A DNA stretch of 64,000 nt, taken from assembly GCF_012027395.1 (NCBI RefSeq), contig NZ_SNUJ01000005.1, positions 1 through 64,000 on the forward strand. Reading direction: 5' to 3'. The DNA comes from Thermococcus sp. LS1 (GTDB lineage Archaea > Methanobacteriota_B > Thermococci > Thermococcales > Thermococcaceae). The notes under the pieces were generated by a model. That model searched no databases and was not told the DNA's origin. It saw only the letters and a program-made list of their open reading frames with translations. The position numbers and the translations under genes are program-made. This document shows, one piece after another, positions 1 through 20,933 of the stretch (position 1 is its first letter; every line of letters starts with the position of its first letter).

Positions 1-1667
1 ATGAGCGGAGCATCGGCGACGCTGTAGCCCTTGAGCATCTCTGGAACGGCGGGCAAGTTGTTGTAAGTCGGCGCCCTGACCTTCCAGCGATAGACCTTGT
101 TCTTCCTGTCGGTCATGACGTAGTGGACAAGCTCGCCGCGATGGGCCTCGGTGAAGCCAAGTGCTTCTTCGTACTCCGGCAACTTGCCAATGGGAGTGAA
201 TATTTCCCCACCCGGCATCTGGTCGATGAGCTGCTCCACAATCCAGATGCTCTCGAAGAGCTCGTCCATCCTGACGAGAACTCTTGCTAAGACATCGCCT
301 TCCTTATAAACCGGTACCTTGAAGTCCACCTCGTTGTAAGCCATCGCTGTCTTGGTCGCTTGGTCAAGTCTGGTGTCTATTTTTCTCCCGCTGGCACGAG
401 CCGTTGGACCGAGGACCGAATATACCTTGGCGACCTTATAGGACAATATTCCAACGCCTTCCACTCTTTTGATAAACGTGTTAGTGTTCAGGGATATATC
501 TATGAACTTTTTCACCTCCTCACGTATCTGCCTGACGACCTTAGGCACTTCCTCCTTGCGATAGTCGAGCAGATCTCTCCTTACGCCGCCGACGATGTTC
601 ATTCCATATTGCTTTCTATTGCCAGTCAAACGCTCCATGAGCCACATAACAGGTTCTCTGATGCGCCATGAATGCATAAATCCAGTATCATAGCCAACGA
701 GGTGAGCAGCAATTCCGGCCCACAGAAGATGATTATGAATTCTCTCAAGCTCGAGGAGTAGAGTTCTTATGTACCTAGCTCTGTCTGGTATTTCAACGTC
801 AGCCAAGCGCTCAATCGCCATAGCATAAGATACTGAGTGCTGGTAGCCGCAGATGCCACAGACTCTCTCGGCAAGGAAGAGCACCTGATTGTAGGTCAGC
901 CTTCCCTCTCCTATCTTCTCGATTCCCCTGTGGGAGTAGAAACCCCGATAATCAACGTCAACTATTTCCTCACCCTTCACGAAAAGCCTGAAGTGAGCAG
1001 GCTCTTCAATACCCATGTGGACGGGACCCATCGGGACAAGGCAAGTTCCCTCGGGACCATCCTTGAACTCTGTATTCGGCTCAGTTATGGGCGAGTAGCG
1101 ATAATCCATGTCCTTCCTGAGCGGGTAAACACCCTCCGGCCAGTCCTCCGGCAGGACGAGTCTCCTTGGATCGGGATGGCCTATTGGTTTGAAACCGAGA
1201 AGATCCTTTACTTCCCTCTCTATCCACAGTGCTGCCGGAAGCTTCGCAGCGACGCCTGAGAAGCTCGGATCGTCCTCGGGTATATATGTCTTCAGGAAGA
1301 CGTAGTAGTTCCTGTCCATGTTGAAAGGTTCAACCTGGACGTTCAGGAGGGGCATGTAAATGAACTTTCCATTAAGAGGTCTTTCATCGGTTCCGATAGC
1401 AGTAGAAAAGTGTGTCTCCTTGAACTTCGGATGGTTATGCCACCAGAGCACGGCCTCTGGAAGGACTTCCATATCTATCACGAACTGATACTGGCCGTAG
1501 CTCATCCTCTTACATTCGCGTATATGTTCCTTAAAGGTCTCATAAAACTCGCTGAGACCTTCCCTCTCGGAGAGTATCTCATCGACGTTAGCTTCCTTGC
1601 AGTGGCCCCTCTCACGGACCCTGTACTCAAACTCAAAGTGAGCTTCCAAATCTTTAGTCTTAACCAT
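1..1667 (-). CDS. Group 4 [NiFe] hydrogenase large subunit, NuoC-NuoD/HycE-like (partial)
   Basis: This is the catalytic large subunit of a membrane-bound energy-conserving hydrogenase of the formate hydrogenlyase type. The frame runs open from an ATG at 1667 to the window edge, so about 555 residues are present and the C-terminus is missing. The first ~150 residues resemble the 30-kDa NuoC subunit; the rest resembles NuoD/HycE. Near residue 268 the motif RVCGICG supplies the first Cys pair that ligates the NiFe centre. The second Cys pair, near the C-terminus in this family, would lie outside the window. It starts two bases after the stop of the NuoH-like gene, so it belongs to the same operon. 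The small subunit and remaining hydrogenase genes are expected beyond position 1. Confidence 0.9.
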   Translation of the reverse strand, partial: MVKTKDLEAHFEFEYRVRERGHCKEANVDEILSEREGLSEFYETFKEHIRECKRMSYGQYQFVIDMEVLPEAVLWWHNHPKFKETHFSTAIGTDERPLNGKFIYMPLLNVQVEPFNMDRNYYVFLKTYIPEDDPSFSGVAAKLPAALWIEREVKDLLGFKPIGHPDPRRLVLPEDWPEGVYPLRKDMDYRYSPITEPNTEFKDGPEGTCLVPMGPVHMGIEEPAHFRLFVKGEEIVDVDYRGFYSHRGIEKIGEGRLTYNQVLFLAERVCGICGYQHSVSYAMAIERLADVEIPDRARYIRTLLLELERIHNHLLWAGIAAHLVGYDTGFMHSWRIREPVMWLMERLTGNRKQYGMNIVGGVRRDLLDYRKEEVPKVVRQIREEVKKFIDISLNTNTFIKRVEGVGILSYKVAKVYSVLGPTARASGRKIDTRLDQATKTAMAYNEVDFKVPVYKEGDVLARVLVRMDELFESIWIVEQLIDQMPGGEIFTPIGKLPEYEEALGFTEAHRGELVHYVMTDRKNKVYRWKVRAPTYNNLPAVPEMLKGYSVADAPL

Positions 1668-1668
1668 T

Positions 1669-2589
1669 TTACCACCCCATAAACGCTATTGCGAGTATTA
1701 TCATACCTGCGAAGAACATTCTAACGTTCATCTTGACCACATGATCAATCCTGAGCCTTGCGTTAGTTGCCTCAAGCACCGCTATTATTGGGTAGAACGC
1801 TATTGTTAGCAGGAACTGCAGTGCTAGCACGAGAGCTCCTTTTTCGGGTGTGTCTATCTGCCCAAGCCATGGGAGGATTAGCAGGCTGACAAAGAACCAC
1901 AACAGGGTGAAGCGTTTGATGTAGATTGCATAGTAGAACACTCCGAGGAGCCTTCCGCTATACTCCCCAAGTGGCCCACCTATGACTTCTTGCTCAGCCT
2001 CGGCTATATTGAAGGGTACGAACCCACTCTCAACATAGAGCGCGTAGGCGAGGAGTATATAGGTTAGTAACACCGACGGAGTAAGGTGAAGATTTGCTAT
2101 TATGCCAGAGATGCTGAGCGAGCCCGCATTATAGGCGAGGACTCCGTAGAGTACAGCTATTAACGGCTCAACAGTTAGGGCTATCTGCATTTCCCTGGCT
2201 GAACCAAGATGACTGAAAGCGTTCTGGACGGTCAAGCCTGCAAGGATGAGGAATATACTGACCATCATCATAACATAGAAGAACACTACTAGATTGAAGC
2301 CGAAGTCCACCAGCACGACATTGCCGTAGGGGAGGAGAAGGGCAGCGGAGATTGCAGAGACAAGGGCAAGATATGGTGCCCACGTGAACAGGGCGCTGGA
2401 TGTTGGTCTAACCGATGGAAGTGCGAAAAGCTTCTGGAGGTCATACCAGGTCTGACTGAGCGGAGGCCCTCTCCTGTACTGGAGCCTAGCCTTGACCCTT
2501 CTCGCAATACCGTCAAGATATGGTGGCAGAAAGAGCAGAATGAGAATACCAACAAGGCCGAACCCAAGTTTGATTATGTCTATTTTCAT
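1669..2589 (-). CDS. Hydrogenase membrane subunit, NuoH/HycD-like
   Basis: An integral membrane protein of about 306 residues with roughly eight hydrophobic segments, resembling HycD/HyfC and NuoH. It anchors the hydrogenase large and small subunits to the membrane and forms part of the ion path. Family signs include the N-terminal stretch RVKARLQYRRGPP and the acidic loop around EAEQEVIGGPLGEYSGR. I chose the ATG at 2589 because GAGGTGGGG lies just upstream; a GTG nine bases earlier is also in frame. The gene sits tightly between the 665-residue antiporter-like gene and the large subunit gene. Confidence 0.9.
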   Translation of the reverse strand: MKIDIIKLGFGLVGILILLFLPPYLDGIARRVKARLQYRRGPPLSQTWYDLQKLFALPSVRPTSSALFTWAPYLALVSAISAALLLPYGNVVLVDFGFNLVVFFYVMMMVSIFLILAGLTVQNAFSHLGSAREMQIALTVEPLIAVLYGVLAYNAGSLSISGIIANLHLTPSVLLTYILLAYALYVESGFVPFNIAEAEQEVIGGPLGEYSGRLLGVFYYAIYIKRFTLLWFFVSLLILPWLGQIDTPEKGALVLALQFLLTIAFYPIIAVLEATNARLRIDHVVKMNVRMFFAGMIILAIAFMGW

Positions 2590-2599
2590 CTTCCCCACC

Positions 2600-4597
2600 T
2601 CATAGTACCATTAGGATACCGATTATCGCTCCCACAACTATCAGGGCGAGCACCACGAAAGTTCCGAGCCTAAGTCCTGGGAGAATGTCCCTGACTATTC
2701 TGAGGAGCCTTATAAGCGGCTTGAATGTCTCCTCATCAATGTAGAGCAACTGTTCCTTTCTAAGGTCTGATAAGCTCTCAACATCCGTGTACGGTGTGTC
2801 AACAATCTTAACGAAGTAGCTCGCCACCCATATGTAGGCTCTGACAATATAGTGAATTATCTCCTCTCCGAGGCTGTAAAACCAGTCACCGAAGCGGTAG
2901 AAAGAGCCTATCTTCTCCTCATACTTGAGATAGTAGCCCTCTGCGGTTATCCTATACTCATCGGTATCGAGTTCCGTTGAACCACAATCCCAAGGCTTTG
3001 CTGTCTTGCCATACTCTGGTTTGAAGCTCAGGTACAGCCCGAGAGCAAGGACGCCGAAGAGCACCACGAAGAGCACTGGCGAGAATAACACCGAGCCAAA
3101 GCCTATCTTGTAGATGTTGTCCGTAAGTGGAGCGCTAAAGGGTTCGTTGAGTATCGGAGTTACAAGCTTCGGAAAGATACCTATAACGAGTGTAAGTCCG
3201 GCCAAAATCCACTGGCCGGCGAGCATTCCCACTGGAACCTCCTTTACAGTCGCATACTTTTTCATCTCACCACCAAACTGGGCACCGTAGAACTTTACGA
3301 AAGAGGCAAGCGTTGCAGCGCTTATGAACGCGGCGAGCACTGCACCAACAGCAAGAATGAAGCTCTTTGACTGGTAGCCTGCCACATATATAAGCCATTT
3401 ACTTATGAATCCATTGAAGGGTGGGATTCCGGCTATCGCAAGTGATGAGAAGAGCGCAGCAAGAGCGGTCCACTTCATGTACTTTCCAAGGCCACCAAGC
3501 TCATTTAGGTTAAAGGTTCCGGTTCTATATTCAACTGCTCCAGCCGAGAGGAAGAGCGAGGACTTAAAGATTGCGTGATTGAATGCGTGGAAGACACCAG
3601 CAAATGCTCCAAGAGCACCAACTTGGGCGAGGGTACCGCCCTTTGGTATCAGAGCCATTCCTATGCCGATTCCAAGCCAAATGTAACCCATCTGACCAAT
3701 GCTGTGGTAGGCAAGAAGTCGCTTTGCGTTAGTCTCCCTGAGGGCGTAGAGCGTTCCAACGGTAAGGGTAATGGCTCCGAGAACTGCAATCAGTAAGCCA
3801 AGGGTTGAACTGTCTCCTATGAGCCTCCAGATAAGAGCTATCAGCCCATAAATGGCGACCTTCTCCATGGCTCCGGCTATAATAGCTGAAACACTGCTCG
3901 GTGCTGCCCTGTAGGTCTCAGCGACCCAGAAGTGGAACGGAACTATCCCCGCCTTGGTCATGAACGCCAGCAGAAAGAGACCATAGAGGACTATCTTCGT
4001 GCTTTCTGGGGCAGTTGCAAGAGCAACGTGAATATTTCCAAAGGTGAGCTTCTCAAAGCTCCCCACAAGGGAGTAGGTGGTACCGAGGGCGAGGAAGAGA
4101 GGTATTGTATCGAAGAAATGCATTGTGATGTAGTACTTGACACTCACTCCAACATCCCTTGCCTTTTCACTGGAGAATACCAGTATAAACGAACTAAGAG
4201 TCATAAGCTCCCAACCTATGACAAAATACTCCATGCCGTCTACGGTGACGATTAGAACCATCGAGGCGAGAAAAGTATTGTATGCTATCGCGTAGACCCA
4301 TCCTTTGCCTTTGTTTTCAAAGATGTCCATGTAGCTTATCGCATAGAGGGAAGTTGCAATTCCAACGAGACCTATGATCAGCAGAAAGATATTCGAGAGG
4401 CCCGTTATGTTAAGGGAGACCCCAAATAGATCGACTCTCTGGGGGCCGTTGGTGTACACCTTGTAGGTCTCCCCAAGTACTGCGAGAGAGCCGATGAACG
4501 CCATGAAGCTTGAGGCCTTGACGGCAGTTTTATAGTCTGTCACGAACCCAAAAAGGCCGCCAATTATGAAGGCAATAATTGCATATTTGAGAAACAT
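2600..4597 (-). CDS. Antiporter-like hydrogenase subunit (HycC/HyfB, NuoL family), 665 aa
   Basis: A large polytopic membrane protein of the Mrp/NuoL/M/N antiporter family. It carries the conserved core (WELMTLSSFILV near residue 130, a second Lys-bearing helix near AFMTKAGIVPFHFW, and HAFNHAIFKSSLF) that makes ion-translocating half-channels. The C-terminal ~150 residues form a longer tail like that of HycC/HyfB. In formate hydrogenlyases this subunit pumps H+ or Na+ while electrons pass to the hydrogenase. The start at 4597 follows GGGTGATGTGAA. It lies seven bases from the preceding gene, within the operon. Confidence 0.9.
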   Translation of the reverse strand: MFLKYAIIAFIIGGLFGFVTDYKTAVKASSFMAFIGSLAVLGETYKVYTNGPQRVDLFGVSLNITGLSNIFLLIIGLVGIATSLYAISYMDIFENKGKGWVYAIAYNTFLASMVLIVTVDGMEYFVIGWELMTLSSFILVFSSEKARDVGVSVKYYITMHFFDTIPLFLALGTTYSLVGSFEKLTFGNIHVALATAPESTKIVLYGLFLLAFMTKAGIVPFHFWVAETYRAAPSSVSAIIAGAMEKVAIYGLIALIWRLIGDSSTLGLLIAVLGAITLTVGTLYALRETNAKRLLAYHSIGQMGYIWLGIGIGMALIPKGGTLAQVGALGAFAGVFHAFNHAIFKSSLFLSAGAVEYRTGTFNLNELGGLGKYMKWTALAALFSSLAIAGIPPFNGFISKWLIYVAGYQSKSFILAVGAVLAAFISAATLASFVKFYGAQFGGEMKKYATVKEVPVGMLAGQWILAGLTLVIGIFPKLVTPILNEPFSAPLTDNIYKIGFGSVLFSPVLFVVLFGVLALGLYLSFKPEYGKTAKPWDCGSTELDTDEYRITAEGYYLKYEEKIGSFYRFGDWFYSLGEEIIHYIVRAYIWVASYFVKIVDTPYTDVESLSDLRKEQLLYIDEETFKPLIRLLRIVRDILPGLRLGTFVVLALIVVGAIIGILMVL

Positions 4598-4603
4598 TTC
4601 ACA

Positions 4604-6040
4604 TCACCCTATGAATCCTATCTTCATAACAACATCTAGTGTAATCCATGGACTTACCATGCCTATGATTACCAGTGTTATCATTACTACCTTCATGAGC
4701 GTTGATTCGTGAATTTCGCTGACTGGTTGTGGCGCACCGAAGAAAATTTCCTTGAACCAAAGGAGCACAACCACAAGGAATATCGCCGCATCAAAGAGAA
4801 CAACGCCAGGGAAGAGCCATGATGCAATACCCTGGGCATGTCTAGTACTCATGATTGTGAATGCCTTGCTAAAGAACAGACCAAGGGGCAGGATACCTGC
4901 AAGGCCAAGGAAGCTGAGAAACCAGGCAACACTTGCCCATGGGAGGCTATGCCTTGTTCCCCTGATCTTCTCGAGGTCTGTCGTTCCAAAAGCGTAGGCA
5001 AAGGTTCCGATGCTCATGAATGCAAGGGCCTTAACGAGAGTGTGATTGACAACCTGATAAAGCGCTATCTGCAGACCAACTTTGTGGCCGAGAAGTGCAT
5101 ATGCGAGGGTTATGTAAGCAACGCCTATCTGTGCTATCGTAGAATAGGCTAAGAGTCTCTTGCCATCCTTCTGGAGCGGATAGTAGATCATCATGAGCAG
5201 TATCAGGACAACGGTGAGTGAGCCTAAAAGCCAGAACTCGTTCCTGCCAGGGTTCATGTACTGGATGACCCTGAAAAGCATGAAGCTCCCAAGAGGAACT
5301 ATTGATGCAGAGTGAATGTAAGCAGATGCCGGAACCGGACCGATCGTTGTATCTGGCAACCAAGAATAGAAGAACAACTGTGAACTCATCGCCAGCGCGG
5401 CAAATATTATGATTGTGAAGGTTGTGTCCTTGGTAAACTGATTAATGCCCTCCATCTTAGCAAACTCCTGATTTTCACTAAGGAGTGCAATGGCAACGAG
5501 AAGAAGTACAACCGCAAGGTTGAGTACAAGGAACGCCTTGATGGCATTACTCTTTGCATTTCCGTAAAAATTCACAAGGTGGAGAAGAGCTATTGCCATG
5601 AGCTCAAGGAAGACGAGGAACTGAACGAGGTTTGTGCTGTAGATAAATGTCATTGTTGAACCCATAAGTAGTCCGAGAAAAGCATAGAACTTCCCTTTTC
5701 CACTTTCAAGGGGGAACTGTCTGTTTGATGGACCCATGTAGTCTGCTGCATAGAGAACGAGTAAAAATCCTGTTAGAATCGAGATAAACCCCATCATAAC
5801 AGAGGCAACGTCAACGTTGAGGCCAAAGATCTCTCCAAGGTTTTCCACGCGGACATAAAAGTAGTGGTAGACATTCTCTGCCCCAGTCTGGAAAAAAGCA
5901 TAGAGGCCGTAGCTGTTTATGAGCAGAGCAAGAGCAATTATTATTGCCGCAGAAGTGTCTGCAGTTCTACCTTCCATCTTGTAGAGCAAAAGTAGCATGA
6001 AGGGCAACAACACCGATGCAAGGAATATTTCGCCGTTCAC
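4604..6040 (-). CDS. Antiporter-like hydrogenase subunit (NuoM/HyfF family), 478 aa
   Basis: A second antiporter-family membrane subunit of 478 residues with about 14 hydrophobic segments. Conserved features are the glutamate helix LVFLELMAIALLHLV, the helix around SWLPDTTIGPVPASAYIHSAS and the lysine helix YQVVNHTLVKALAFMSIG. A second antiporter-like subunit beside the HycC-like one suggests two ion half-channels in the complex. The start is a GTG with GGTGA four bases upstream. The 101-bp gap before it carries a T-run on the minus strand and a TATA-like stretch, so partial separation from fdhA and the ferredoxin gene is possible. Confidence 0.88.
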   Translation of the reverse strand: MNGEIFLASVLLPFMLLLLYKMEGRTADTSAAIIIALALLINSYGLYAFFQTGAENVYHYFYVRVENLGEIFGLNVDVASVMMGFISILTGFLLVLYAADYMGPSNRQFPLESGKGKFYAFLGLLMGSTMTFIYSTNLVQFLVFLELMAIALLHLVNFYGNAKSNAIKAFLVLNLAVVLLLVAIALLSENQEFAKMEGINQFTKDTTFTIIIFAALAMSSQLFFYSWLPDTTIGPVPASAYIHSASIVPLGSFMLFRVIQYMNPGRNEFWLLGSLTVVLILLMMIYYPLQKDGKRLLAYSTIAQIGVAYITLAYALLGHKVGLQIALYQVVNHTLVKALAFMSIGTFAYAFGTTDLEKIRGTRHSLPWASVAWFLSFLGLAGILPLGLFFSKAFTIMSTRHAQGIASWLFPGVVLFDAAIFLVVVLLWFKEIFFGAPQPVSEIHESTLMKVVMITLVIIGMVSPWITLDVVMKIGFIG

Positions 6041-6141
6041 ACTTCATCACCCAATTGTTTTAAACCTGTGGTTTTCATTGAAAAAGAAAAATACACTGAT
6101 CTCCTCCTGCCCTAAAGAACGAGGGTTGTGGAAAATGAAGA

Positions 6142-6639
6142 TCAGAGCACGAGGAGAGCATTTTCTCCCTTTCCCCTCTTCGCTGAGCTCTTCAGGTTCG
6201 CAACTATTTTTCCTTCTCTGGCCCAGAGGACATCGTTTATGTCGCCGTACTTGAGGGCCTCAGTTGGACACGCTGAGACACAGGCAGGGAGAAGACCTTT
6301 TGCCCTTCTCCCAGCACAGAGCGCACACTTGTCCATAATCTTGTTAGCTTCATCTAGCTTTGGAACACCAAATGGACATGCAACTGCACACATGAGACAG
6401 CCGATACACTTGAGGGGGTCGAGAACGACTGCGCCATCATCGTCCTTGGAGAGCGCGTTAACTGGACACACTTCCATACATGGAGCCTTTTCACAGTGGC
6501 GGCAATTGAAGGCGACGCTGGTCAAGTCAGGGAACTCAAAAACCCTAATTTTTGCTTCGCCATTGATTACTTCACATGCTACTTCACAGGCTTTGCAGGC
6601 AATGCAGCGCTTGAAATCGATAAATATCTTCTTGCTCAT
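6142..6639 (-). CDS. 4Fe-4S polyferredoxin electron-transfer subunit (HycB/HydN-like)
   Basis: A 165-residue iron-sulfur protein with four Cys clusters: CIACKACEVAC near residue 14, CRHCEKAPCMEVC near 47, CIGCLMCAVAC near 79, and CALCAGRRAKGLLPACVSAC near 105. This is the pattern of the HycB/HydN/CooF family, which passes electrons from the molybdopterin subunit to the hydrogenase. It is soluble and has no signal peptide. It begins six bases after the stop of the molybdopterin gene, so the two are co-transcribed. The C-terminal tail beyond the last cluster is short. Confidence 0.93.
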   Translation of the reverse strand: MSKKIFIDFKRCIACKACEVACEVINGEAKIRVFEFPDLTSVAFNCRHCEKAPCMEVCPVNALSKDDDGAVVLDPLKCIGCLMCAVACPFGVPKLDEANKIMDKCALCAGRRAKGLLPACVSACPTEALKYGDINDVLWAREGKIVANLKSSAKRGKGENALLVL

Positions 6640-6644
6640 TTAAA

Positions 6645-8711
6645 TCACCCCTCAACCTTGGAGATCCTACATGCGGCCGTCTTCAGCTCGGGCATCTCAA
6701 CGTACTTATCAAGCACATCTGCAGTCAAGTAGTTAAAGTCCCAGTGCCAGGGCATTGCTATTACCCCCTCCCTGATATTTGGAGTAACCTCTGCTCTGGC
6801 AGTTAGTGAGCCCCTCCTCGTCTCCACATTTACTAAATCCCCTGTTTTGATGCCCAACTTCGCCGCATCACTCACATTTATCATAACGAAAGGCTCTGGC
6901 CACCTCTTTTCGAGGCTCTTACTCCTGAAACTCCTGACTCCAGTACGGAACTGCCCAACCAACGTGAAGTTAGTAAGCCAGAATGGATACTCCTCGTCAG
7001 GCACTTCTCCAGGAGGCTCATAATCCACTGGAATTAAATGAGCTTTCCCATCTGGAGTCATGAACCCATCAAGGAACAGCCTCGTAGTCTCTGTCTTTTC
7101 ATCGGGGCACGGGAAGATGCAGCCTTCAATATTCTCTTTAAGCCTCTCCGGAGTGGCTCCTGCGAGTATGGGAACTGTCCGATTTATTTCCCGCAGTATA
7201 TCATCTACACTCGAATAGTTAAAGTACTCTCCAAGCCCCAATGCCCTAGCAACTTCAACTATTATCTGCCAATCTGGCTTGGCGTCTCCAGGAGGGTCTG
7301 CAGCTTTAAAACTTCTCTGGACTCTTCTTTCAAAACTCATTATTGTGCCTTCTTGCTCATACCATGCTGCAGCGGGGAGAACAATGTCCGCATACTGAGC
7401 AGTCTCGTTTGGGAAAACATCCTGAACCACAATAAACTCCGCTTTTTTCAGAGCTTCCCTGACAAATGCCGAGTTTGGAGCACCTTTTGCAGGGTTAACC
7501 CCCACTATGTATAACGCTTTAACCTTTCCTTCGTTGATGGCCTCTATTATCCTGAAGTATGTGAGCCCCGGTTTTCTCGGTATTTTGAAGCCCCAGATTT
7601 CTTCGATCCTCTTTACTTCTTCTTCATCTTCCACTGAGACTCTTCCTGGCAGCATATCACAATCAACGCCCATCATTGAGACTCCCATAGCGTTGTATGC
7701 ACCGGGTATTGCCCCAGACATCACTCCCTCCTTTCCAACGTACCCGCAGATAACAATGAGGGCTGCCAGTGCCATGTGAAGTAAAGTACCATTAGCATGC
7801 TGGGTTGAACCCATCTGCTGCAGTAATGCTCCCTTTCCCGCAGTTGCGAATGTTATTGCAGCTTTTTCAATTAATTCTGCCGGAACACCGCTGATCTTTT
7901 CTGCCCACTGTGGGGTGTACTGCTCAACTTTCTTTGCCAGCTCTTCAAAACCTTCAACTCTCTCAGCGATGAAGTCCTTGTCGTACAATTCATTTTTTAT
8001 TATCACATTGAGCATTGCCAAAGCAACTGCCAAATCAGTTCCGGGATATGGCTGAAGGTGGATGTCGGCGAACTTAGCAGTTTCGGTCTTCCTTGGGTCA
8101 ACAACAATTAACTTGGCTCCATTGTCCAGAACGGCCCTTTCAACATACTGCCCAAAGAACACTGGACTTGTTGCTGCGGGGTTATAACCCCAAATCAAGA
8201 TTGCTTTTGTTTTCGTTATGTCCTCAAACGGGTTTGTCAGAAATGGATTTCCGAGTATCTTCTGCTTGGCAAAGAACACTGTAGACTGACAGAATCTTCC
8301 GGGGTGCTCCACATTGTTCGTTCCCAGTGCTCTGGCCAGCTTTTGCAGAACATAATTTGCCTCCACTGATATCCTTTCAGTCCCCAAAAAAGCCAGTGCC
8401 TCCGGACCATATTTTTCTTTTATTTCTTTTAGTTTTTGAGCAATTTCTTTAATCGCTTCTTCCCAGCTGATCTCAACGAACTTTCCCTCTCCCCTTTCAC
8501 CAGCCCTCTTAAGAGGCTTCCTGAGCCTGTCTGGATGTCTAAGATACTGGAACGAAGCAACACCCTTTGGACAGAGCTTCCCCTTGTTGGGTATACCCGG
8601 GTGGTCGTAATCGAACTCGATTTTCTTGGGGTATCCATTGTCGTTTACTATATACAGCCTACATCCAACAGAACACCAAGCACAGACTACAGGCACAAGT
8701 TTTTCTGCCAT
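6645..8711 (-). CDS. Molybdopterin (bis-MGD) oxidoreductase, formate dehydrogenase alpha-like
   Basis: A 688-residue oxidoreductase of the DMSO-reductase superfamily, placed where the formate dehydrogenase H homologue sits in formate hydrogenlyase operons. The N-terminal 4Fe-4S site is C10, C13, C17 and C47. The candidate metal-ligand cysteine is C141 in GRFCQST, a plain Cys codon rather than UGA, so no selenocysteine is needed. By-eye alignment with E. coli FdhF puts Gln142 at the catalytic His141 position and a proline at Arg333 (segment GAIPGAYNAMG). Formate as substrate is inferred from gene context only; those two changes leave room for another substrate. The start at 8711 follows AGGGGTGATT and a TATA-like box near 8765. 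Confidence 0.82.
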   Translation of the reverse strand: MAEKLVPVVCAWCSVGCRLYIVNDNGYPKKIEFDYDHPGIPNKGKLCPKGVASFQYLRHPDRLRKPLKRAGERGEGKFVEISWEEAIKEIAQKLKEIKEKYGPEALAFLGTERISVEANYVLQKLARALGTNNVEHPGRFCQSTVFFAKQKILGNPFLTNPFEDITKTKAILIWGYNPAATSPVFFGQYVERAVLDNGAKLIVVDPRKTETAKFADIHLQPYPGTDLAVALAMLNVIIKNELYDKDFIAERVEGFEELAKKVEQYTPQWAEKISGVPAELIEKAAITFATAGKGALLQQMGSTQHANGTLLHMALAALIVICGYVGKEGVMSGAIPGAYNAMGVSMMGVDCDMLPGRVSVEDEEEVKRIEEIWGFKIPRKPGLTYFRIIEAINEGKVKALYIVGVNPAKGAPNSAFVREALKKAEFIVVQDVFPNETAQYADIVLPAAAWYEQEGTIMSFERRVQRSFKAADPPGDAKPDWQIIVEVARALGLGEYFNYSSVDDILREINRTVPILAGATPERLKENIEGCIFPCPDEKTETTRLFLDGFMTPDGKAHLIPVDYEPPGEVPDEEYPFWLTNFTLVGQFRTGVRSFRSKSLEKRWPEPFVMINVSDAAKLGIKTGDLVNVETRRGSLTARAEVTPNIREGVIAMPWHWDFNYLTADVLDKYVEMPELKTAACRISKVEG

Positions 8712-8833: not shown

Positions 8834-8886
8834 TGTCCATATTCTTTTACTGACGTATATGTAACTAGATGTCTGGGGTGACATCC

Positions 8887-9246
8887 ATGGAGAGTGATAA
8901 ACTGAAGGTCGTTTTCCATCTGGATCTTGATGATACACCAACACTGATGCTGGCGTTAAAATTCATAAACAATCTTTTCAAGGACGTTGGACAAGAAAAT
9001 GCTGAAGTTGCAGTTCTTGCCAATGCATTTGCTGTAAAACTCTTTGTCAAGGATTCCAACACGAAGTTCAAGGAGCAACTTGAAAATCTGCATAACTGGG
9101 GGGTTAAATTTTATGTCTGCAACAATGCACTAAATACACACTGCATTGACAAGTCCGCTATATTTGAATTCTGTGAAATAGTTCCGGCAGGAATAACAAA
9201 ACTAATAGAACTTCAAAAGGAAGGCTACGCATATGTTAAGACATGA
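8887..9246 (+). CDS. DsrE-family small protein
   Basis: A soluble protein of 119 residues resembling the DsrE/DsrF-like family (alpha/beta fold; sulfur-relay or redox-linked small proteins). The typical layout is seen: an N-terminal strand KVVFHLD, a middle strand AEVAVLANAFAVKLF, a variable helix, then VKFYVCNNAL and a C-terminal GITKLIELQKEGYAYVK. Cysteines occur in YVCNNAL, HCID and FCEIVP. I chose the ATG at 8887 because GGGGTGA precedes it by five bases; an in-frame ATG at 8869 lacks a site. It is divergent from the hydrogenase operon and shares its intergenic region. Its job is not known. Confidence 0.75.
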   Translation: MESDKLKVVFHLDLDDTPTLMLALKFINNLFKDVGQENAEVAVLANAFAVKLFVKDSNTKFKEQLENLHNWGVKFYVCNNALNTHCIDKSAIFEFCEIVPAGITKLIELQKEGYAYVKT

Positions 9247-18447: not shown

Positions 18448-19017
18448 GTGGACATCGTTAAGCTCAGGGAACTGCTGGAGGGGGAGCTTTCATCCCCTGA
18501 CCTCACAGAGCTCGACGAAGAGTTCTACAGGGAATTCGACAGTCTGATAAAAGCCCTTAAACTCAGCGCTGAGAGCTCCCGCGAGAGGGGTGAGGACATC
18601 GAGGAGCGCCTTTACCTCGCCCAACTCAATATCGCCGAGAAGTTAATGCGCGAAATAATCAAAATCAGGCTCCATAAAATCGTAGATCTGGCCGTTGAAG
18701 GAATACCTCAAGAGATGACAGCCGAGGAGAAGAGGATTTTCACTATTCTGAGGGCATTCATCGAGCGTGAGGAGATTCCGGTTGAGGTTCCGGCCGAAGC
18801 CGTTGAGGTTCCCGAGAGCATCCCCACTGCAGAGCCACCAAGGAAAACCATTCCCAGGGAGGCGTACATAATCAAGATCGACCTCCCCAAAATCCTCGAC
18901 GCCGAGCTGAAAGGATACGGGCCGTTTAAAGCGGGCGATCTGGTGACGCTCCCCCGGGAGATAGCCAAGGTTCTCATCGAGAGGGAAGCTGCAGAAAAAA
19001 TCAAGATATCCCCGTGA
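18448..19017 (+). CDS. gins15: GINS complex subunit Gins15 (Gins51)
   Basis: A 189-residue replication protein. In Thermococcales the Gins15 gene lies next to pcn, as here. The N-terminal ~110 residues form the helical A-domain, a Pro/Glu-rich linker spans about residues 110-135, and the C-terminal B-domain has AYIIKIDLPKILDAELKGYG and a final LPREIAKVLIEREAAEKI. GINS joins MCM and the GAN/Cdc45 nuclease in the archaeal helicase. The start is a GTG preceded by GGTGAGAGC. The stop overlaps the start of the next gene. Confidence 0.88.
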   Translation: MDIVKLRELLEGELSSPDLTELDEEFYREFDSLIKALKLSAESSRERGEDIEERLYLAQLNIAEKLMREIIKIRLHKIVDLAVEGIPQEMTAEEKRIFTILRAFIEREEIPVEVPAEAVEVPESIPTAEPPRKTIPREAYIIKIDLPKILDAELKGYGPFKAGDLVTLPREIAKVLIEREAAEKIKISP

Positions 19018-19022
19018 TGGTT

Positions 19023-20933
19023 ATGCCGTTCTCCGCCTGCATGCGGGACTGCTACGACACCTGCTCGATGATAAGTGAGGTTAAGAATGGGCGCCTAGTT
19101 GTCAAAGGAAACTCCAGGCATCCAATAACGGAGGGGTTCCTTTGTCCAAAGGGCGCGCTTCTGCCCAAGTGGTTCCACGCGGAGGACAGGCTTAAGGTTC
19201 CGCTCATTAGAGCGGGCGAGAGAGGAAGTAGAAAATTCCGAGAGGCGAGCTGGGCGGAGGCCATCAACCTCGTCGCCCAAAAACTGATGGAGACGATAGA
19301 TGAGTACGGAAGCGAGAGCGTCCTCGTCTACCAGTACGCGGGGGATAGGGGCACTGTGAACTATGCCTTCCCGCTTAGGCTCTTCCACTACCTGAACACC
19401 GCAATGCTTGATTACGGAATTTGCGACCGGGCTGGCCAGGAGGCTTTGAGGGACATCTATGGAACGGCAGTTGGAATGGATCCCGAGGAGCTAAAAAGGC
19501 AGAAGCTCATCGTGTACTGGGGCATCAACGCCTTCTGGACCAACCTTCACGGCTTTATGCTGGCCAAAAAGCACAACCTTGAAATCTGGACCGTTGACGT
19601 CGTCAGAACCGAGACGGCAAAGAGAAGCGACAAGTTCTTCCAGATAATGCCCGATACCGATGTCCTCCTCGCTCTGGCCGTTGCGAAGCTCATCATAGAG
19701 AATGAGCTCTATGATAAGGACTTCGTCCGCGAGAACGTTTATGGTTTTAAAGAATTCAAGAATTATGTAATTAAACTGGGCCTTGACTTCGTGGAGCGCG
19801 AAACGGGTTTGAGCTATGAAGAAATTGAGGAGTTTGCCTTCGACTTCGCCGAGAAAAAAGGTGTTATACATATCGGATACGGCTTCCAGAGGTCTTTGAG
19901 TGGCGGAGAGGCAGTGAGGGCCATCTCAATTCTCCCGGCCCTGGTCGGTCATCACTTCGGCTTCATCTACGACATGAAAACGATAGACAAGAGCTATGCC
20001 GAAGGGGCTTTCCTGCGAACGAAGCCTGCAAAGAGAATCCCGCAGATGAAGCTTGCCGAATACATCGAGAAGGGCGAGATAAAGTTCCTCTACGTTTACA
20101 ACTCCAACCCGCTGGCGAGTTTGCCGAATCAGAACAGGCTCAGGAGAGCTCTGGTAGAAAACGATGTCTTTATCGTTACCCACGACATCTTCCTGACTGA
20201 CACGGCCCTATTCTCTGACGTCGTCCTGCCGGCGAACACCTTCTTTGAGAGGCTCGACATAGTTGACTCCTACTATCACCGCCACGTAGCTCTAAACGAG
20301 CCAGTTGCAGAACTTTACGGAAAATCCAACAGCGAGGTAACGAGGCTTTTGGCCAAAGCCCTTGGCATCGAGAACCCTCACCTCTACGAGAGCGACGAGG
20401 AGGTAATACGGAAGGTTCTGGAAATCAACGACCTAAGCTGGGAGGAGCTGAAAGCCAAGGGCTTCGTAAAGGTTCTAGAAAAGCCGAGGAAGTGGGAGAC
20501 ACCGAGTGGCAAAATCGAGTTCTACTCTCAGAGGGCCACTGAGCGCGGTCTATCACCGTTTCCGGAATACAAGCCCCCACAGGGCAACTACCCACTCCGC
20601 CTGCTCAGTCCAACGCACAGGATGACGATAACGAGCCAGTACCACAACACCTACGGGATAATAGACCCGAGCCTCTACATGAACCCAGATGATGCTGAGG
20701 AGAGGGGAATCTGCGACGGAGACACCGTAGAGGTTTTCAACGACAATGGGAGGATCAAAACGACCGTGAAACTTAGTGATGATGTTCCTAAAGGCGTCGT
20801 CCTACTCTACAAGGCCTTCTGGCCCTCTTTGCTTGGCTGGAACGTGAACTTTTTGACAAGCGATAAAACCGTCGAAAAATATGGCAACGGGTCTGCCTAT
20901 CATTCAACTTGGATTGATGTGAGAAAAGTCTGA
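19023..20933 (+). CDS. Molybdopterin (tungsten/molybdenum) oxidoreductase, stand-alone
   Basis: A 636-residue DMSO-reductase-superfamily enzyme. The N-terminal 4Fe-4S site is C5, C9 and C13, with a fourth Cys in EGFLCPKG. A likely metal ligand is the Cys of YGICDRAGQEA near residue 146. It has MGD-binding segments (LIVYWGINAFWTNLHG, SNPLASLPNQN) and the C-terminal domain with TSQYHNTYGIIDPSLYMNPD. There is no twin-arginine signal, so it is cytoplasmic. No partner subunit sits beside it, and the substrate is unknown. It overlaps the gins15 stop; ATG at 19017 or 19023 could start it, both without a clear ribosome binding site. Confidence 0.85.
   Translation: MPFSACMRDCYDTCSMISEVKNGRLVVKGNSRHPITEGFLCPKGALLPKWFHAEDRLKVPLIRAGERGSRKFREASWAEAINLVAQKLMETIDEYGSESVLVYQYAGDRGTVNYAFPLRLFHYLNTAMLDYGICDRAGQEALRDIYGTAVGMDPEELKRQKLIVYWGINAFWTNLHGFMLAKKHNLEIWTVDVVRTETAKRSDKFFQIMPDTDVLLALAVAKLIIENELYDKDFVRENVYGFKEFKNYVIKLGLDFVERETGLSYEEIEEFAFDFAEKKGVIHIGYGFQRSLSGGEAVRAISILPALVGHHFGFIYDMKTIDKSYAEGAFLRTKPAKRIPQMKLAEYIEKGEIKFLYVYNSNPLASLPNQNRLRRALVENDVFIVTHDIFLTDTALFSDVVLPANTFFERLDIVDSYYHRHVALNEPVAELYGKSNSEVTRLLAKALGIENPHLYESDEEVIRKVLEINDLSWEELKAKGFVKVLEKPRKWETPSGKIEFYSQRATERGLSPFPEYKPPQGNYPLRLLSPTHRMTITSQYHNTYGIIDPSLYMNPDDAEERGICDGDTVEVFNDNGRIKTTVKLSDDVPKGVVLLYKAFWPSLLGWNVNFLTSDKTVEKYGNGSAYHSTWIDVRKV

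What the first reader, a model, noticed from the sequence alone, without database searches (positions are those of the whole stretch)
6645..8711. Formate-hydrogenlyase molybdopterin subunit lacks two residues used by formate dehydrogenase H
The metal-ligand position is Cys141, but the next residue is Gln where E. coli FdhF has the catalytic His141, and the segment matching Arg333 reads GAIPGAYNAMG with Pro at that place. Both changes together are unexpected for a formate dehydrogenase. The enzyme may use a different substrate, or a different mechanism for formate, while feeding a complete group 4 hydrogenase.
Basis: partly seen in the sequence, partly recalled or inferred. Interest (0 to 1): 0.6.

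Follow-up and report, generated by a model that had tools for sequence, protein, structure and literature searches.

The report
Hydrogenase-linked "formate dehydrogenase" missing catalytic residues
In heat-loving Thermococcus archaea, a whole branch of hydrogenase-linked proteins labelled "formate dehydrogenase" lacks the two residues that formate dehydrogenases rely on, so the label, and perhaps the fuel they burn to make hydrogen, needs testing.

Summary
The 688-aa protein on the minus strand (6645-8711) has Cys141, the metal-ligand position, followed by Gln142 where FdhF has His141. It has Pro336 where FdhF has Arg333, and Ala338 replaces the nearby Gln.

This is not a one-off. The change is fixed in 38 of 38 members of one well-supported Thermococcaceae clade. 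All 35 aligned members of the other main thermococcal FdhA clades keep Cys-His-Arg-Gln. By gene order the clade contains T. onnurineus Fdh1 (TON_0281), which is not needed for growth on formate; the formate-active Fdh2 and Fdh3 keep His and Arg. It matches the "group 4 fhl" operons of Holden and Sistu: TetR upstream, no formate transporter, MobA in the operon. The window copy is under purifying selection and is joined to a group 4 hydrogenase module of another lineage.

Most likely it is a working bis-MGD oxidoreductase, electron-coupled to a group 4 [NiFe]-hydrogenase, whose substrate pocket is rebuilt so that formate is not its main substrate. A weak or non-canonical formate dehydrogenase remains a serious rival, because B. 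subtilis ForC works with Gln but keeps Arg. The substrate is unknown. The window ends inside the hydrogenase large subunit, so "complete hydrogenase" is not shown by the window itself.

The parts
6645..8711 (-). FdhA-like bis-MGD oxidoreductase subunit, 688 aa, Cys-Gln...Pro-Gly-Ala type; [4Fe-4S] ligands Cys10, Cys13, Cys17, Cys47; Lys49
8286..8291 (-). Codons of Cys141 (metal ligand) and Gln142 (His141 position of FdhF)
7698..7706 (-). Codons of Pro336-Gly337-Ala338 (Arg333-Gly-Gln335 of FdhF)
6142..6639 (-). FdhB/HycB-like 4Fe-4S electron-transfer subunit, 165 aa, 86% to the C4 paralogue
4604..6040 (-). MhyC: Proton_antipo_M (NuoL/N-like) membrane subunit
2600..4597 (-). MhyD: Proton_antipo_M membrane subunit
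1669..2598 (-). MhyE: NuoH-like membrane subunit
1..1667 (-). MhyF: group 4 [NiFe]-hydrogenase large subunit with the N-terminal motif RVCGICGYQH; 3' end lost at the contig end

Best explanation
The protein belongs to a Thermococcaceae clade of DMSO-reductase-family subunits, the FdhA of 'group 4 fhl' operons, i.e. the T. onnurineus Fdh1 type. It most likely still binds a Mo/W-bis-MGD cofactor through Cys141 and passes electrons through its own [4Fe-4S] cluster and the HycB-like FdhB to an ion-translocating group 4 [NiFe]-hydrogenase. The substrate pocket has been rebuilt from Cys-His/Arg-Gly-Gln to Cys-Gln/Pro-Gly-Ala, removing both positively charged second-sphere side chains that formate dehydrogenases use to hold formate/CO2. 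I therefore think formate is not its main physiological substrate and that it couples oxidation (or reduction) of another, probably internal, compound to H2. Shown: residues, clade, operon, selection. Inferred: cofactor, electron path. Least certain: that formate is not the substrate.
For: 38/38 clade members are Cys-Gln-Pro-Ala and 35/35 members of the Cys-His-Arg clades are Cys-His-Arg-Gln. Only 13 positions are fixed differently between the two sets, and three of them are these second-sphere residues. The Gln/Pro clade is single with SH-aLRT 100, a long stem (0.59 changes per site) and no reversion. Cys141, the FeS ligands and Lys49 are invariant, and MobA sits at the end of group 4 operons, so a metal cofactor is probably present. 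Purifying selection: dN 0.015, dS 0.186 against the 97% copy. Formate transporter in 21 of 27 genomes with a Cys-His-Arg fhl/nfd FdhA, but in 1 of 20 with only the Gln/Pro type, and that one is an incomplete genome that also holds FdhD. T. onnurineus Fdh1 (= locus L109 by gene order TON_0276-0281) is this type; only the fdh2 cluster is needed for formate growth and Fdh1 rises on sulfur instead. In T. paralvinellae group 4 fhl expression falls on formate. RcFDH R587K already has a large Km for formate and a lower kcat. Relative to Cys-His-Arg paralogues, five clade members lose 63-280 bits on the formate dehydrogenase model and gain 23-81 bits on thiosulfate reductase PhsA.
Against: No member has been purified, so absence of formate activity is not shown. 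B. subtilis ForC oxidises formate with Gln in place of His, though it keeps Arg. Four of five members tested still pass the TIGR01591 formate dehydrogenase cut-off. T. litoralis membranes show formate-dependent H2 evolution although the FdhA of its characterised fdh-mhy operon has Ala for Arg; that organism also has another FdhA. No neighbouring gene names an alternative substrate.
Confidence: 0.55

Rival explanations
1. It is a non-canonical formate dehydrogenase: formate is still oxidised, with other residues doing the work of His141 and Arg333, serving cytoplasmic formate (for example from peptide breakdown) and not needing a transporter.
For: ForC works with Gln next to Cys. Whole-protein fold and sequence are closest to formate dehydrogenases. 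Published authors assume formate removal during amino-acid catabolism for this complex and for T. litoralis.
Against: ForC keeps Arg (RGH); here Arg is Pro and the adjacent Gln is Ala, in all 38 members. RcFDH R587K loses formate affinity. No covarying His/Arg near either loop was found in the clade comparison.
Confidence: 0.3
2. The subunit is catalytically dead at the metal site and serves as an electron-transfer or structural adaptor, as NuoG does in complex I.
For: Loss of second-sphere residues. A related thermococcal type (group 3) has lost even the Cys ligand.
Against: Cys141, FeS ligands and Lys49 are invariant in the clade, MobA is in the operon and selection is strong. The dead-looking group 3 proteins diverge fast, whereas this clade is well conserved.
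Confidence: 0.12

Closest known systems
Thermococcal group 4 fhl / T. onnurineus fdh1-mfh1-mnh1 (TON_0281)
   Same: Same clade, same Cys-Gln-Pro-Ala, HycB-like partner, group 4 hydrogenase, no formate transporter in the operon; the C4 paralogue also has TetR upstream
   Different: The window copy has no TetR or hyp genes upstream, and its FdhA/FdhB pair is joined to a hydrogenase module of another sub-lineage
Thermococcal formate hydrogenlyase Fdh2-Mfh2-Mnh2 (group 1A)
   Same: FdhA fold, HycB-like subunit, group 4 hydrogenase
   Different: Cys-His-Arg kept, formate transporter (often also FdhD) alongside; 49-52% identity
E. coli FdhF in formate hydrogenlyase-1
   Same: Best structural match (1fdi, TM-score 0.86), same complex logic
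   Different: Sec-His-Arg-Gln replaced by Cys-Gln-Pro-Ala
B. subtilis ForC (YjgC/YrhE)
   Same: Gln next to the Cys ligand
   Different: ForC keeps Arg (RGH), has an N-terminal extension and a menaquinone-linked partner ForE
T. litoralis fdhAB-mhyCDEFGH (group 3)
   Same: Same gene order from fdhA to the hydrogenase; also lacks the Arg
   Different: Cys-His kept and Arg is Ala; near relatives have Ser for Cys; separate clade

Membership tests
Formate dehydrogenase alpha subunit (TIGR01591) | Score above curated cut-off | tested here: met
   690.3 against 666.25 bits
Mo/W formate dehydrogenase, functional | Cys/Sec ligand | tested here: met
   Cys141
Mo/W formate dehydrogenase, functional | His next to the ligand and Arg in the second sphere | tested here: not met
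   Gln142 and Pro336 in 38/38 clade members
Mo/W formate dehydrogenase, functional | Formate oxidation | not testable with these tools
   No activity data for any clade member found
Group 4 fhl / Fdh1-type clade | Phylogenetic position with T. onnurineus fdh1 | tested here: met
   Clade support 100; L109 by gene order
Group 4 fhl / Fdh1-type clade | TetR gene about 350 nt upstream | tested here: not met
   None at the window copy; present at the C4 paralogue and other loci
Group 4 fhl / Fdh1-type clade | No formate transporter in the operon | tested here: met
   None nearby; the two transporters of this genome are beside the C1 and C2 fdhA genes
ForC subfamily | Cys-Gln with Arg-Gly-His | tested here: not met
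   Cys-Gln present, Arg absent
Nitrate reductase (Met/Thr at the two positions) | Met and Thr at the His and Arg positions | tested here: not met
   Gln and Pro
Group 4 [NiFe]-hydrogenase complex | Large subunit with NiFe motifs, small subunit, NuoH and antiporter-like subunits | tested here: inconclusive
   N-terminal motif and membrane subunits in the window; large-subunit C-terminus, HycF-like and small subunit at the end of contig C2, join inferred

The most novel reading that the evidence does not exclude
The Fdh1/group 4 complexes of Thermococcaceae are a distinct class of H2-coupled, ion-pumping bis-MGD oxidoreductases with a substrate other than formate (for example a sulfur compound or an aldehyde), mislabelled as formate hydrogenlyases across the order.
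Probability: 0.4. Interest if true: 0.78.

Novelty: new variant of a known kind. Interest (0 to 1): 0.57.

Why it matters
Reviews and stress, pressure and proteome studies of Thermococcales count these operons as formate hydrogenlyases and build energy budgets on formate. If the clade does not use formate, a third type of H2-coupled energy-conserving complex is waiting for its substrate, and predictions of formate metabolism from genomes are wrong for about half of the genomes that carry it (20 of 37 here have no other fhl/nfd FdhA detected). If it does use formate without His and Arg, it is a natural test of what those residues do, a question still debated for formate dehydrogenases and for CO2-reducing catalysts. 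Either outcome can be tested with one purified complex from a genetically tractable host.

Tried and rejected
A pairwise aligner seemed to show the solo (group 5) FdhAs also lacking Arg; MAFFT restored it, so that was an artefact. The AlphaFold model (pLDDT 72.5) has both active-site loops below 50, so I draw nothing from it about pocket geometry; it supports the fold only. FdhD was tested as a marker of formate enzymes and rejected: several Cys-His-Arg formate hydrogenlyase genomes also lack it. A sulfur reading (DsrE beside the window gene, TauE beside the G113 copy, DUF302 in many group 4 operons, sulfur induction in T. onnurineus, better PhsA score) was followed, but none of the neighbours is conserved across the clade, so it stays a lead. 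No SurR motif lies in the 157-bp intergenic region. The phylum-wide search returned the same 115 genomes as the class search. The scan of 84,980 species genomes with two clade peptides found the type only in Thermococcus records plus two remote hits; other bacterial or archaeal lineages with a different N-terminus could be missed.

Full report
OBSERVATION. The gene is on the minus strand, 8711 to 6645, 688 aa. Against FdhF (PDB 1aa6) the phmmer alignment is ungapped through both sites: Cys141 on Sec140, Gln142 on His141, Pro336 on Arg333, and Ala338 two residues later where FdhF has Gln. Codons were checked. The protein passes the NCBIfam formate dehydrogenase cut-off (690.3 against 666.25 bits). 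An automatic pipeline will therefore name it formate dehydrogenase.

HOW WIDESPREAD. The window's genome has four close FdhA paralogues: the window gene, one at C4 (74%), one at C2 (54%) and one at C1 (50%). The C4 copy shares Gln/Pro; C2 and C1 have His/Arg. A class-wide search of 115 genomes, added loci and an 84-protein alignment gave 38 distinct Gln/Pro proteins and 35 His/Arg proteins, without a mixed case inside either set. Only 13 positions are fixed differently between the sets, and three of them are the second-sphere positions 142, 336 and 338. If 13 of 688 positions were drawn at random, all three being hit would have probability about 5e-6. Two of the three were picked by the finding beforehand; the third on its own has about 0.016. 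In the tree the Gln/Pro proteins form one group (SH-aLRT 100, stem 0.59) with no reversion. That is a quick tree; its long outgroup and group 3 branches make deep order unsure, but not this group.

WHICH KNOWN SYSTEM. Gene order identifies it. In genome G075 (contig length 1,847,607, which I recall as T. onnurineus NA1) three fdhA genes lie at 248, 494 and 1,434 kb. The first (L109) sits in the order NiFe-large, NuoH, two antiporter-like, HycB-like, FdhA, which fits TON_0276 to TON_0281, with TetR, HypD and HypF beyond. The literature gives TON_0276 as the hydrogenase large subunit, TON_0280 as Fdh1B, TON_0281 as FdhA and TON_0286 as HypF. This first one is Gln/Pro. The other two (L120, L121) have the described Fdh3 and Fdh2 gene orders and keep Cys-His-Arg. 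So the formate-active enzymes have His/Arg and the Gln/Pro enzyme is Fdh1. The fdh2 cluster is the only one needed for formate growth. Fdh1 subunits and its hydrogenase were up-regulated on sulfur, to the authors' surprise. Holden and Sistu's group 4 fhl operons (TetR about 350 nt upstream, no formate transporter, expression lower on formate in T. paralvinellae) match the clade's loci. In G111 (contig length as I recall for T. paralvinellae) TetR ends 357 nt upstream of the Gln/Pro fdhA.

FORMATE TRANSPORTER. Formate transporter genes are in 22 of 115 genomes. They occur in 21 of 27 genomes with a His/Arg fhl or nfd FdhA, and in 1 of 20 genomes where only the Gln/Pro type was found. That one, G112, is about 75% complete and also has FdhD, so its His/Arg gene is probably missing from the assembly. 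Fisher p = 6e-7, not corrected for kinship. Lack of a transporter does not exclude internal formate.

IS IT A WORKING ENZYME. The metal-ligand Cys, the four FeS Cys and Lys49 are invariant. Many group 4 operons end with a MobA that scores above NCBIfam's cut-off and so should make bis-MGD. Against the 97% copy in G113, dN is 0.015 and dS 0.186. Hence a conserved, probably cofactor-loaded enzyme rather than a relic. ForC shows that Gln for His is tolerated in formate oxidation when Arg stays. For R. capsulatus FDH, R587K has a large Km for formate and a lower kcat, and azide inhibition points to Arg587 as the anion site. I found no published formate dehydrogenase with Pro there. Relative to His/Arg paralogues, clade members score lower on formate dehydrogenase models (655-727 against 790-935 bits) and higher on PhsA (265-301 against 220-242). 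This hints at a moved specificity but does not identify a substrate.

WINDOW CLUSTER. FdhA here is 97% identical to a G113 copy that stands with only an FdhB and no hydrogenase. The window's hydrogenase genes are 74-88% identical to those of the clade's 60%-type operons and only 38-70% to the genome's own C4 operon. So an FdhA/FdhB pair appears to have been joined to another lineage's hydrogenase module whose own FdhA is also Gln/Pro, which suggests equal function. The window begins inside the large-subunit gene. C4 and C5 end in 127 identical bases. The last residues of the large subunit, the HycF-like and small subunits lie at both ends of contig C2; the set at the high end (small subunit 85-87%) fits the window's operon and the set at the low end fits C4. 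The join is inferred. Beyond it lie a SufS-family cysteine desulfurase and ordinary metabolic genes.

STRUCTURE. The AlphaFold model (12 sequences) has pLDDT 72.5 with both active-site loops below 50. Foldseek's best match is FdhF (TM-score 0.86), with nitrate reductases and ForC close behind. It confirms the fold, not the pocket.

SIDE RESULT. T. litoralis (identified by an exact primer match from Takacs et al. in G101) has Cys-His but Ala for Arg in the FdhA of its characterised fdh-mhy operon. Six related group 3 proteins have Ser for the Cys ligand. Formate-dependent H2 evolution was seen in T. litoralis membranes but not characterised.

VERDICT. Observation confirmed and generalised to a clade; interpretation plausible and not refuted; substrate unknown. 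I put 0.55 on "not a formate enzyme in the main", 0.3 on a non-canonical formate dehydrogenase and 0.12 on a non-catalytic subunit.

Noticed in passing
L118:2984-4897, L119:2120-4033, L071-L076: Group 3 FdhA: the T. litoralis type has Ala at the Arg position, and six related proteins have Ser at the Cys metal-ligand position, so the published T. litoralis 'formate hydrogenlyase' also lacks a catalytic residue.
   Followed up: partly
window 1-8711 and L103:11963-14535: Module swap: the window FdhA is 97% identical to a G113 copy that stands with FdhB but no hydrogenase, while the window hydrogenase genes belong to another group 4 sub-lineage.
   Followed up: partly
window 1; G000 contigs C4 end, C2 both ends: Contigs C4 and C5 end in 127 identical bases inside the hydrogenase large-subunit gene and both operons seem to continue at the two ends of C2; an assembly break at a repeat.
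   Followed up: yes
window 8869-9246 (+): DsrE/DsrF-like gene divergent from fdhA, 157 bp away; not seen beside other clade members.
   Followed up: partly
window 19014-20933 (+): A distant DMSO-reductase-family protein (639 aa) with Cys in GICDRAGQ, present in nearly all relatives; function not examined.
   Followed up: no
L053:5928-6374 and L106:266-706: Conserved 143-148 aa protein of unknown function beside MobA in group 4 operons; only a faint nucleotidyltransferase-like hit.
   Followed up: partly
NCBIfam TIGR01591 hits of the clade, e.g. window 6645-8711: This equivalog model calls most Gln/Pro proteins formate dehydrogenase although the catalytic His and Arg are absent, a likely source of wrong annotation.
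   Followed up: yes
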